Assembly: GCF_000177635.2 (NCBI RefSeq)
Contig: NC_014836.1
Span: 1,748,001 to 1,812,000, forward strand
From: Desulfurispirillum indicum S5
Lineage (GTDB): Bacteria; Chrysiogenota; Chrysiogenetes; Chrysiogenales; Chrysiogenaceae
DNA: 64,000 bases
Direction of reading: 5' to 3'
Positions 18,764-51,611 of this stretch are shown in pieces (position 1 is the first letter of the stretch; the number at the start of each line of letters is the position of its first letter). A program made the translations under genes and the position numbers. Below the pieces are notes generated by a model, which searched no databases, was not told the origin of the DNA, and worked only from the letters and a program-made list of their open reading frames with translations.

Positions 18764-21019
18764 GTGCTGAAGCATTTCCATACATTTCTGCTTGTATTTC
18801 TTGCCTGTGTCACATTCTCCCTCTCTGCTCTGGCCGCTCCTCCCATAGACCGCATAGAAACCGAAGGTCTGACCACCATGAGTCACCGTGCCTTCCTGGA
18901 TCGCATCCGCATTTCGCCTGGCCAGGCCCTTGACCCGACCATTCTGACCGAAGATATCAAGAGCCTCTACCAGCTCGGAAATTTCGAGGATATCCGTGTC
19001 TACCGCACCAGTGTTGATGGCGACGAGGTGCTGCGCTTTGTATTTGTCGAACGCCCCCGTGTTGGCTCTTTCAGCGTAGAGGGAAACAAACGCATTCGAA
19101 CCGACCAGATTGAAGAGGCGCTCTCTGTGGAGCCCAATGCCATCTACAGCCCCGAACTGGTCGCCCGACTGCGCGAAGGGCTGAGACAGATCTATGACAG
19201 CCGGGGAATGCAGGATGTGGTCATCACCGATGAGTCCACATTCCGCGCCAGCACCCGCACCTATGACATCGTCTTCCGCGTACAGGAGGGCACCCGCGCG
19301 CGTATCACCGACTTTATCTTTGAAGGTGCTTCCTACAAGCGCAAGGATTTCTACCGCTATATGGAGAACCGGGAAGAGCGCTGGTACTCCTGGCTCACCG
19401 GGCGCGGAAACCTCTCGCGGGTCAAGGCGGAAATGGATGTTCAGCGTCTCCAGCAGTTCTACTTCAACCGAGGCTACCTGGATGTCGCCATCAGCGGCCC
19501 CGAATATCTGCTCCAGGATAACGGCAACTATATCATCCGCTACCAGATTCAAGAGGGAGATCGCTACCGCCTGCGCACAGTGCAGTTCCGCGGTGCCCGC
19601 GATCTCGTCACCCAGGAGCAGCTGCAGGAGGCCATGAGGGTCAAGGAAGGCGAATACTTCAACTCGTCCAGGGTGCACGAGAGCATCGTTGCCATCACCC
19701 GACTCTTCGCGAATCAGGGTTATGCCGATGCCAGCGTTCGCCCCATGGATGCCATGGATTCCACTAACCTGGTCGTCGACCTGACCTTCCAGATAACGCC
19801 AGGTGAACCCTATACTATCGGTTTTGTGGATATCACTGGCAACAACAAGACCCGTGACAAGGTCATCCGACGCCAGATGCAACTGCTGGAGGGCGATGAG
19901 TACAGCGCCGCTGCCGTCGATGAGTCCAGGCGCCGTCTGAACAACCTGCGTTTCTTTGAAGAGCTGCGTCTGCAGGAACGCAAGACCGATCAGCCGGGCG
20001 AAATGGATATTGTCGTCGATGTACGCGAGGCCCCTACCGGCATGTTCAACCTGGGTATCGGCTACAGCACCGTGGACAGGATTGTCGGCACCACCAGTGT
20101 CAGCCAGGGGAACCTCTTCGGGCGTGGCCAGGTGCTGAACTTCAGTCTGGAAAAAAGCTCCGAGCGCACCTACTACTCCGTGAGTTTTACGGAGCCCTAC
20201 CTGTTTGACCGCGACATCAACTTCTCGCTCTCCTTCTATGATCAGGTGCGGCAGTACACCTACTACGACGACCATCGTCGTGGGTTCTCCGTCACCCTCG
20301 GTCGCCCCCTCTTTGAAGAAGTGCGGGGGAACATCCGCGTCAAGCACGAGGAGATCAATATCCGCGATGTGGACAGTCAGGCTGCCGATGTCATCAAAGA
20401 GATGGAAGGCAGCGCCACCACCCGCAGCATCATGCCCTCCCTCAGCCGCAATACCCTCGACAACCGCTGGCTGCCCACGCGTGGCACCCGCTCAACCCTC
20501 TTCGTCGAGTATGCCGGTGGCGATATCGGCGGAGACAATAACTTCATCAAGTACGGCCTGACTCACAGTATCTACCACCCGCTCTGGGCCAGACTCATCG
20601 GCGCGGTCAACGTGGAGATGCGTTTTGCCGAGGGGCACTCCGGCAGTACCTCGATCCCCCCCTACGAACGGCTCTACATGGGCGGCATCAACTCCATGCG
20701 CGGCTATCGCTTCCGCGAAGTGGGGCCCAAGGATGAGACAGGCGAAGCCCAGGGCGGCTACAAAAGCTTCCTGACGAACCTGGAAATGCTCTACCCCCTG
20801 AACGAAGACGGCTCCCTGCGCTTTGTGCTCTTCTACGACATCGGGAACGTCTACGACCGCGGAGAGAACTACCTGGACGACGTGCTGCGCAGTTACGGCT
20901 ATGGTATCCGCTGGCTGACTCCCGTTGGCCCCCTGCGCCTGGAGTATGGCTATAAGGTCGACCCTGAGCCGGGTGAAAGCCGAAGCCGCCTTGATTTCAC
21001 CATCGGAACCATGTTCTGA
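18764..21019 (+). CDS. bamA: Outer membrane assembly factor BamA
   Basis: Central barrel of the BAM complex that folds outer-membrane proteins. The GTG at 18764, preceded by GGAGG at six bases, gives 751 residues with a clean signal peptide ending in LSALAAPP; the ATG-less longer reading overlaps the promoter region. Five POTRA repeats fill about residues 25-410 (for example FSVEGNKRIRTDQIE and VDITGNNKTRDKVIRR), followed by a 16-strand barrel. The loop-6 motif is MRGY in GINSMRGYRF, and the protein ends in TMF. It is followed by skp, the usual chaperone partner. Confidence 0.95.
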   Translation: MLKHFHTFLLVFLACVTFSLSALAAPPIDRIETEGLTTMSHRAFLDRIRISPGQALDPTILTEDIKSLYQLGNFEDIRVYRTSVDGDEVLRFVFVERPRVGSFSVEGNKRIRTDQIEEALSVEPNAIYSPELVARLREGLRQIYDSRGMQDVVITDESTFRASTRTYDIVFRVQEGTRARITDFIFEGASYKRKDFYRYMENREERWYSWLTGRGNLSRVKAEMDVQRLQQFYFNRGYLDVAISGPEYLLQDNGNYIIRYQIQEGDRYRLRTVQFRGARDLVTQEQLQEAMRVKEGEYFNSSRVHESIVAITRLFANQGYADASVRPMDAMDSTNLVVDLTFQITPGEPYTIGFVDITGNNKTRDKVIRRQMQLLEGDEYSAAAVDESRRRLNNLRFFEELRLQERKTDQPGEMDIVVDVREAPTGMFNLGIGYSTVDRIVGTTSVSQGNLFGRGQVLNFSLEKSSERTYYSVSFTEPYLFDRDINFSLSFYDQVRQYTYYDDHRRGFSVTLGRPLFEEVRGNIRVKHEEINIRDVDSQAADVIKEMEGSATTRSIMPSLSRNTLDNRWLPTRGTRSTLFVEYAGGDIGGDNNFIKYGLTHSIYHPLWARLIGAVNVEMRFAEGHSGSTSIPPYERLYMGGINSMRGYRFREVGPKDETGEAQGGYKSFLTNLEMLYPLNEDGSLRFVLFYDIGNVYDRGENYLDDVLRSYGYGIRWLTPVGPLRLEYGYKVDPEPGESRSRLDFTIGTMF

Positions 21020-21052
21020 TGTAACTATTCACATCCAACCTGCGATTTTTAC

Positions 21053-21138
21053 GCATGAGCGCCAGCGTTCCGAGAGCGAGCCTGGATGGCGAGCGGCAGA
21101 GGCTCGAACCATGGATGAAAGTGAGCGTCTCTGGGAGG
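21053..21138 (+). repeat. Interspersed repeat family A, copy 1
   Basis: About 85 bases matching the reverse complement of 51417-51499. Shared blocks include GAGCGGCAGAG, CTCGA, CCATGGA and GAAAG; differences are mostly transitions, with two single-base indels. It fills most of the 264-base bamA-skp gap, which otherwise holds a possible skp -10 (TACTAT near 21240). Confidence 0.75.
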
Positions 21139-21283
21139 AATGCTGGCACGATTGCCAATGTACCGTGAATAATTACGTTCTGATAAGATATCCCAAGGCA
21201 GACCGCGAAGAGTCTCCTTATCTTTTCCGAATTTCTGGTGTACTATAGGCAACAAAGGAAAACGGCCGACCAGGAGTTTCTCT

Positions 21284-38602: not shown

Positions 38603-38672
38603 CCTGTTTCTGTCTCTCCCCCGTGTGCTGGCCCAGCCAGGACGCGCCGACTGGAACGCGATGGACCCGCAG

Positions 38673-38697
38673 GGTTGCCGCCACGAGGGCGGCAACC
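38673..38697. other. Perfect 10-bp hairpin
   Basis: GGTTGCCGCC (38673-38682) pairs exactly with GGCGGCAACC (38688-38697) around a five-base loop. No T-run follows. It lies in the pabC-trxB gap. Confidence 0.6.
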
Positions 38698-38789
38698 GCA
38701 AACCAAAAGCCATGGAGGGCGGTTGTTTGCGGTCCCCAGTTCCAGGCAAGCGGGCGGCTGAAAAGGACAGCACTGGGGGTCGCTTTTGC

Positions 38790-51363: not shown

Positions 51364-51416
51364 TAGCGAAACCCCTGCAATTTCCTGCGTGCAAAGAAGC
51401 ACACGCGGGAGTGTTC

Positions 51417-51499
51417 CCTCCCTGAGACACTCGCTTTCGTCCATGGCTCGAGTCTCTGCCGCTCACCATCCGGCTCGCTCCTGGAACACTGGCGCTTCT
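51417..51499 (-). repeat. Interspersed repeat family A, copy 2 (inverted)
   Basis: Its reverse complement matches 21053-21138 in blocks AGCGCCAG, GAGCGAGCC, GAGCGGCAGAG, CTCGA, CCATGGA, CGAAAG and GGGAGG; differences are mainly C/T and A/G changes. It stands between divergent panE and hisC. Confidence 0.75.
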
Positions 51500-51611
51500 G
51501 CTGAAAAAGTTAACAGTGCCGCCATGCAGAGTTCCAAAAAATCTACGTGCATAAGAAAGGGGAATTTGCTACACCTTACGGGCATAGAATACCATTTATT
51601 GAGGCCTTTGC

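What the first reader, a model, noticed from the sequence alone, without database searches (positions are those of the whole stretch)
21053..21138. Interspersed intergenic repeat family A (two copies, inverted)
About 85 bases after bamA match the reverse complement of 51417-51499 almost throughout. Changes are chiefly transitions, and one copy has an in-frame stop where the other has a codon, so protein coding does not explain the conservation. It is unlike an IS end and has no flanking duplications that I can see. It may be a small mobile non-autonomous element, a structured RNA or a protein-binding repeat.
Basis: seen in the sequence. Interest (0 to 1): 0.6.

Follow-up and report, generated by a model that had tools for sequence, protein, structure and literature searches.

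The report
Tiny jumping element with RNA fold
The repeat is part of a 156-base jumping DNA element, present in over thirty places in this bacterium, whose middle is a conserved Y-shaped RNA fold that is also found without the jumping ends; what the fold does is not known.

Summary
It has 14-bp imperfect terminal inverted repeats (GTAACYNTTYACGG) and a perfect 8-bp target duplication (GTTCTGAT, 21013-21020 and 21177-21184) that includes the bamA stop codon. The genome (length identical to Desulfurispirillum indicum S5) holds 32 BLAST copies and 37 covariance-model matches. One relative (G002) holds 23 model matches; another (G001) holds 2, without those ends. 56 other searched genomes hold none. 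Nine of 32 copies have perfect 8-bp duplications; shuffled flanks predict none. It is therefore a MITE. Ends and duplication length fit IS66, but no IS66 transposase was found. The core folds into a three-way junction: rewritable outer stem P1, almost invariant hairpin P2, variable hairpin P3. Covariation is strong, but private changes in single copies do not favour pairing, so the fold looks maintained by the element's lineages, not by each insertion. Cores without the ends exist with rewritten P1 stems, one as an in-frame peptide insertion. Both hairpin loops carry GGA and all three genomes encode CsrA, so CsrA binding is a testable guess. No Rfam family matches. The mobile element is firm; the RNA's role is open.

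The parts
21013..21020 (.). left copy of the 8-bp target site duplication GTTCTGAT; contains the bamA stop codon TGA (21017-21019)
21021..21176 (+). complete MITE, 156 bp
   Evidence: 32 genomic copies
21021..21034 (+). left terminal inverted repeat GTAACTATTCACAT
21048..21153 (+). Y-shaped core, covariance-model match (122 bits)
21059..21071 (+). P1, 5' strand GCGCCAGCGTTCC
   Evidence: structure counted; coordinates read
21076..21094 (+). P2 hairpin, almost invariant: GC-GA-GCC-(TGGAT)-GGC-GA-GC
   Evidence: coordinates read
21097..21133 (+). P3 hairpin, variable stem, loop with GGA at 21113-21115
   Evidence: coordinates read. The single-sequence minimum-energy fold of this copy pairs P2 and P3 differently
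21137..21149 (+). P1, 3' strand GGAATGCTGGCAC
   Evidence: coordinates read
21163..21176 (+). right terminal inverted repeat CCGTGAATAATTAC
21177..21184 (.). right copy of the target duplication GTTCTGAT
51401..51506 (-). second, decayed copy in the window (core only; outer part of P1 broken; terminal repeats degraded)

Best explanation
It is a miniature inverted-repeat transposable element (MITE) of the Chrysiogenaceae. Shown: it ends in 14-bp inverted repeats, makes 8-bp target duplications, and sits at different, almost always intergenic, sites in two genera. Inferred: a DDE transposase, most likely of the IS66 type and no longer found in these genomes, moves it in trans. Shown: its core is a covarying three-way junction (P1, P2, P3) read on one strand. 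Inferred: the fold acts when the element is transcribed with host operons (or as single-stranded DNA) and is kept because element lineages with the fold persist, not because each insertion serves the host. The most likely biochemical role, still only a guess, is to present the P2 hairpin and the two GGA loops to an RNA-binding protein, CsrA being the first candidate.
For: Duplications: 9 of 32 copies 8/8 and 3 more 7/8, against none expected at 7 or 8 from flanks of different copies; in G002 five of seven full-length copies I could delimit have 7/8 or 8/8. Empty site: G002 bamA ends in ...ATGTTCTGACGC with no element at that position. Covariation: MAFFT alignment A1, 36 of 48 distinct cores: 92.6% of cells paired versus 28-44% for slid structures, 28 double-change cells versus 7.6 in shuffles, 0/500. 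Model alignment A3, 49 distinct of 51: 21 of 28 pairs with changes on both sides versus 7.7, 0/500. Strand: 97 G-U against 28 A-C cells in A3. P2 mean entropy 0.2 bit versus 0.61 (P1) and 0.68 (P3). GGA in 44 of 49 P2 loops and 44 of 49 P3 loops, median spacing 29 nt; CsrA in 3 of 3 genomes.
Against: No autonomous partner: IS66 gave one sub-threshold match in 3 genomes, IS1595 none; other families were not tested. Private changes in stems (states seen in at most 2 rows) are 15 G-U against 21 A-C, no sign of RNA-level selection on single copies. Orientation relative to flanking genes is not clearly biased: 14 same to 5 opposite in G000 (two-sided p 0.064), 21 to 12 with G002 (p 0.16). A3 is fitted to the model and leans towards it. 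In A1 the number of pairs with two-sided changes (8 of 28) was reached by 21 of 500 shuffles and the number of further pair types by 207 of 500. The window copy and the second copy fold no better than, or only moderately better than, shuffles (z -2.06 and 0.05 on the core strand; -2.93 for the full element).
Confidence: 0.82

Rival explanations
1. The core is a host RNA family (a functional small RNA or mRNA element) with a few ancestral copies, and one copy was captured between IS ends and amplified; the MITE copies are mostly passengers.
For: Cores without recognisable terminal repeats in G000 and G001 have almost wholly rewritten but paired P1 stems and an intact or nearly intact P2: G001 C22:239263 and C4:274510, G000 1376862, 517196, 2802106, 131304. 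G001 has only such cores (2 of 2 matches).
Against: None of the solo cores was found at an orthologous site in another genus (one search found only a shared gene pair within 4 kb, with the cores on different sides of it); one lies inside a coding sequence.
Confidence: 0.35
2. Each copy is a cis-acting regulator or mRNA-processing/stability element for the operon in which it lies.
For: Four copies in the same orientation fill four consecutive gaps of a sulfate transporter / PAPS reductase gene run; many sense copies end 14-60 nt before the next predicted start codon.
Against: Flanking genes are functionally mixed, orientation bias is weak, a run of three copies in G002 lies antisense to its genes, and private changes do not preserve pairing.
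Confidence: 0.15
3. The fold matters as DNA: a hairpin needed by the transposase or by replication-linked transposition, or simply palindromic sequence typical of MITEs.
For: Hairpins are usual in bacterial MITEs (review PMC2229807, first part of the text read).
Against: Lineage-level G-U over A-C asymmetry (97 to 28) favours a single-stranded, strand-specific state; G-T pairs in single-stranded DNA could give the same sign, so this is not decisive.
Confidence: 0.25
4. A short conserved peptide is encoded in one frame.
For: One core (G000 131304-131411) is translated as an in-frame insertion of roughly 24-29 residues in an FAD/Fe-S oxidoreductase relative to two Azospirillum homologues; the frame +1 is open in 41 of 49 cores.
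Against: The core length is 0, 1 and 2 modulo 3 in 7, 21 and 21 of 49, single-base indels occur between subfamilies, and in P2 the free position is the second codon base in that frame while almost all third positions are fixed, the opposite of protein-level constraint.
Confidence: 0.05

Closest known systems
Bacterial MITEs (Correia/NEMIS, ERIC, RUP, MITEAba12)
   Same: 100-200 bp, terminal inverted repeats, target duplication, no transposase gene, mostly intergenic, structured transcripts (PMC2229807 first part read; PMC6382973 passages)
   Different: 8-bp duplication and GTAAC ends instead of TA; G+C-rich branched core with covariation and one almost invariant hairpin; the core also occurs without the ends
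IS66 family insertion sequences
   Same: ends begin GTAA and duplications are 8 bp (passages in PMC11946415; an IS66 end GTAACCGTCCGGGCA in PMC12888890)
   Different: IS66 repeats are 20-30 bp and begin GTAAGCG; no IS66 transposase above threshold in the three genomes
TwoAYGGAY RNA (RF01731)
   Same: two hairpins with GGA loops, tandem G-A pairs, a poorly conserved outer stem (described in PMC4333381, passages read)
   Different: no Rfam match to any core tested; the RF01731 search of the genomes hit a different repeat below threshold
Csr/Rsm sponge RNAs (CsrB, RsmZ)
   Same: GGA in hairpin loops, spacing within the range for bridging by one CsrA dimer (PMC7652899 passages)
   Different: two sites per copy, dispersed in dozens of copies among host genes; no binding data
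Rickettsia palindromic elements (RPE)
   Same: a structured repeat translated in frame inside a protein gene (one case here)
   Different: here the 32 BLAST copies are all intergenic and only one model match lies in a gene; RPE features beyond the review's table are recalled

Membership tests
MITE | terminal inverted repeats | tested here: met
   GTAACYNTTYACGG, 14 bp, found by pattern and alignment
MITE | target site duplication | tested here: met
   9 of 32 perfect 8 bp, null none
MITE | no transposase gene, only a few hundred bp | tested here: met
   156 bp; 202-203 bp subfamily in G002
MITE | ends shared with an autonomous element | tested here: inconclusive
   none found at the non-MITE sites with similar ends that I read; only IS66 and IS1595 families searched
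IS66-derived | GTAA ends and 8-bp duplication | tested here: met
IS66-derived | 20-30 bp repeats starting GTAAGCG | tested here: not met
   repeat is 14 bp, GTAAC; compare PMC11946415
IS66-derived | IS66 transposase in the genome | tested here: not met
   one match of 21.3 bits, below the 23.1 cut-off, in 3 genomes
TwoAYGGAY RNA (RF01731) | covariance-model score above gathering threshold | tested here: not met
CsrA-binding RNA | GGA in hairpin loops, two sites 10-63 nt apart | tested here: met
   44 of 49 P2 loops, 44 of 49 P3 loops, 18-30 nt apart where measured
CsrA-binding RNA | A(N)GGA core | tested here: inconclusive
   31 of 49 P3 loops; the P2 loop is mostly YGGAU, without the A
CsrA-binding RNA | binding to CsrA | not testable with these tools
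   CsrA gene present in 3 of 3 genomes

The most novel reading that the evidence does not exclude
The Y-shaped core is an independent RNA family of the Chrysiogenaceae that binds CsrA (or another regulator) through P2 and the two GGA loops and has been spread through operons by capture in a transposon, so that the cell's transcripts carry dozens of dispersed decoy sites: a transposon-built regulatory sponge.
Probability: 0.13. Interest if true: 0.75.

Novelty: new variant of a known kind. Interest (0 to 1): 0.42.

Why it matters
Bacterial MITEs usually look like simple hairpins. This one carries a branched fold whose stems are rewritten while one hairpin stays fixed, and the same fold exists without the transposon ends. 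That gives a clean case for asking whether a mobile element can carry an RNA module, and who benefits. It also explains dozens of intergenic repeats in a deep-branching group with few genomes.

Tried and rejected
Rfam at gathering and permissive thresholds: nothing above threshold. RF01731 in three genomes: 35 sub-threshold matches in G000 (best 28.4 bits against 43), all at another repeat, several of them 140-700 bp from copies of this element. Plasmid collection by distant BLAST: no match. Exact 20-base P2 pattern in viral contigs: none; in 84,980 species genomes: 7 hits in unrelated genomes (a Solirubrobacterales, an Actinobacteria and three Eremiobacterota MAGs, one unclassified bacterium, Myxococcus eversor), not followed up and probably chance (records near the window may be left out there). 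IS1595 transposase: 0 of 3 genomes. Orthologous conservation: L002 (G000) and L063 (G002) share an insertion, but the whole roughly 2.3 kb region is about 95% identical, so this is recent transfer, not conservation of the element. No sigma-70-like promoter or intrinsic terminator around the window copy. A search for relatives of the oxidoreductase in viral contigs found nothing, and solved structures cover only its FAD part. The literature searches 'Desulfurispirillum indicum' (36 papers, 15 listed), 'Chrysiogenes + MITE' (1 irrelevant paper) and two on structured MITEs gave no description of this repeat in what they listed; the genome paper PMC3368425 has 'repeat' only in a reference title (term search of the main text). 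Not in print is claimed only for these searches.

Full report
Where it is. The window is G000:C1:1748001-1812000 of a one-contig genome of 2,928,377 bases. G001 (2.8 Mb) and G002 (2.5 Mb) are other genera of the same family; the family name Chrysiogenaceae is recalled.

Observation. BLAST of 21050-21142 against the whole genome gives 40 places at E <= 10, of which 32 have E <= 2.1e-11, on both strands and spread over the chromosome. A covariance model later gives 37 matches in G000, 23 in G002, 2 in G001 and none in the other 56 of 59 genomes searched (over 40 genomes, stricter filters that lose weak matches).

The unit. Aligning copies with their flanks shows that similarity extends beyond 85 bases to a sharp edge at GTAACCATTCACGG on one side and its inverted counterpart CCGTRAAKAGTTAC on the other. 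The window copy is 21021-21176, 156 bp. Directly outside lie GTTCTGAT (21013-21020) and GTTCTGAT (21177-21184). Over all 32 copies (including those whose ends are unclear), 9 have 8 of 8 matching flank bases, 3 have 7, 2 have 6, 2 have 5, and 16 have 3 or fewer. Pairing left and right flanks of different copies predicts 0.26 copies with 6 matches and none with 7 or 8. In G002 five of the seven delimited full-length copies have 7 or 8; two longer forms of 202-203 bp keep the same ends and have perfect duplications. In the window the duplication covers the stop codon of bamA (Omp85 and POTRA domains), so the insertion left the protein intact. The G002 bamA gene ends in the same ATGTTCTGA with no element at that place; a weak, reversed relic (23.3 bits, E 0.0065) lies about 360 bases further on. 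These facts make it a MITE.

Partner. GTAA ends with 8-bp duplications are the signature of IS66 elements (passages in PMC11946415 and PMC12888890), but IS66 repeats are longer and begin GTAAGCG, and the IS66 transposase family has only one sub-threshold match in the three genomes. IS1595, another 8-bp family (recalled), is absent. No transposase belonging to the element was found at the non-MITE sites with the same ends that I read; at one of them (L039) an IS5-type transposase lies inside a different element with these ends. So the assignment to IS66 is a lead, and the partner may be lost. The exact end GTAACYATTCACGG occurs in 5 of 117 genomes: the three of this family and, at one site each, two others.

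The fold. In G000 and G002 I collected 48 distinct cores and aligned 36; twelve were left out as near-duplicates or broken (L002, L010, L015, L017, L019, L020, L021, L024, L027, L028, L067, L068). RNAalifold gave an outer stem and two hairpins; I completed it by hand to 28 pairs. In this MAFFT alignment 92.6% of cells pair, against 28-44% when the partners are slid by 1-3 columns; 28 cells have changes on both sides against 7.6 in shuffles (0 of 500); but pairs with a two-sided change (8) were reached by 21 of 500 shuffles and the count of further pair types by 207 of 500. A model built from it found further, more distant cores; in the model alignment of 51 (49 distinct) 21 of 28 pairs have two-sided changes, 72 double-change cells against 12.9, 0 of 500. 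That alignment is fitted to the model. The strongest evidence needs no statistics: cores in G001 and in G000 have P1 arms with little or no sequence in common yet complementary (one G-U in the first), for instance GCGTACTGTTCC/GGGACAGTACGC and ACCCATGCTCC/GGAGCATGGGT, around the same AGCGAGCCYGGATGGCGAGCG hairpin or a slightly changed form of it. The solo core L030 (the same place as L133) folds with z = -6.5.

Which strand and which level of selection. In the model alignment G-U cells outnumber A-C cells 97 to 28, and 83 to 24 in the first alignment, as expected if the strand drawn is the one that folds. But states seen in at most two rows are 15 G-U against 21 A-C. So changes private to single copies ignore the fold. 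The second window copy and L027 have partly lost P1 (for the former, for the latter). I read this as selection on the lineages that spread, with single copies decaying after insertion.

Context. By a home-made codon-hexamer gene finder, 32 of 32 BLAST copies in G000 are intergenic. Orientation relative to the flanking genes is 14 same, 5 opposite, 9 convergent or divergent and 4 undetermined in G000; 7 same, 7 opposite, 3 other in G002 (17 hits); p = 0.064 for G000 and 0.16 for both together. Four copies fill consecutive gaps of a run of genes for a solute-binding protein, two permeases, an ATPase and a PAPS reductase, all in the sense direction; three copies in G002 lie in gaps of another run, antisense. 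Downstream genes are otherwise mixed.

Cores without the ends. Four in G000 (1376862, 517196, 2802106, 131304) and both in G001 show no recognisable terminal repeats. The one at 131304-131411 lies inside a 987-residue FAD/Fe-S oxidoreductase; compared with two Azospirillum homologues (52% identical) the protein has an extra stretch of roughly 24-29 residues there. Whether these cores are old MITE copies that lost their ends, or an independent family from which the MITE took its core, is not settled.

What it may do. Both hairpin loops carry GGA (44 of 49 each) with starts 18-30 nt apart, inside the 10-63 nt range over which one CsrA dimer can bridge two sites (PMC7652899, passages); the P3 loops CAGGAAG and CAGGGATG resemble the CsrB repeat and the SELEX consensus quoted there. 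csrA is present in all three genomes. PMC4333381 (passages) proposes the same for TwoAYGGAY RNA, which also has two GGA hairpins, tandem G-A pairs and a variable outer stem; but the cores do not match that family's model, so I do not file them there. Against a pure CsrA reading, the stem of P2 is itself almost invariant, more than CsrA sites need, and most P2 loops lack the A before GGA. The role stays a guess at about one in seven.

Verdict. Mobile element: firm. Y-shaped RNA at family level: well supported. Function: open.

Noticed in passing
window 38672-38734 (+) and about 34 other places in G000: A second dispersed repeat scores 17-28 bits with the TwoAYGGAY model (RF01731, threshold 43), nearly always over model positions 47-111; several copies lie 140-700 bp from copies of the MITE.
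   Followed up: partly
L039 1794-2955 (G000 2192793-2193954), L040, L041, L044: Another element with the same terminal repeat but an unrelated interior (GAGGGTCTCAC...), suggesting one transposase moved at least two MITE types; the L039 copy is interrupted by an IS5-type element.
   Followed up: partly
L035 15239-18847 (G000 1030238-1033846): Four copies in the same orientation in four consecutive gaps of a sulfate-transport/PAPS reductase gene run.
   Followed up: partly
L132 4005-4112 (G000 131304-131411): A core without MITE ends is translated in frame inside an FAD/Fe-S oxidoreductase gene.
   Followed up: yes
L002 and L063: About 2.3 kb around one insertion, with a tetrapyrrole methylase gene, is about 95% identical between two genera: recent transfer carrying the element.
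   Followed up: yes
L041 2336-3873: Two arrays of regularly spaced short repeats, CRISPR-like, appear as repetitive open frames.
   Followed up: no
L039 612-1613: A 333-residue open frame that looks like a REP-associated tyrosine transposase (recalled resemblance; no Pfam hit at 0.001).
   Followed up: no
L073 515-667 and L088 from 1038 (G002): Short derivatives with MITE ends in which much of the P2-P3 part is deleted.
   Followed up: no
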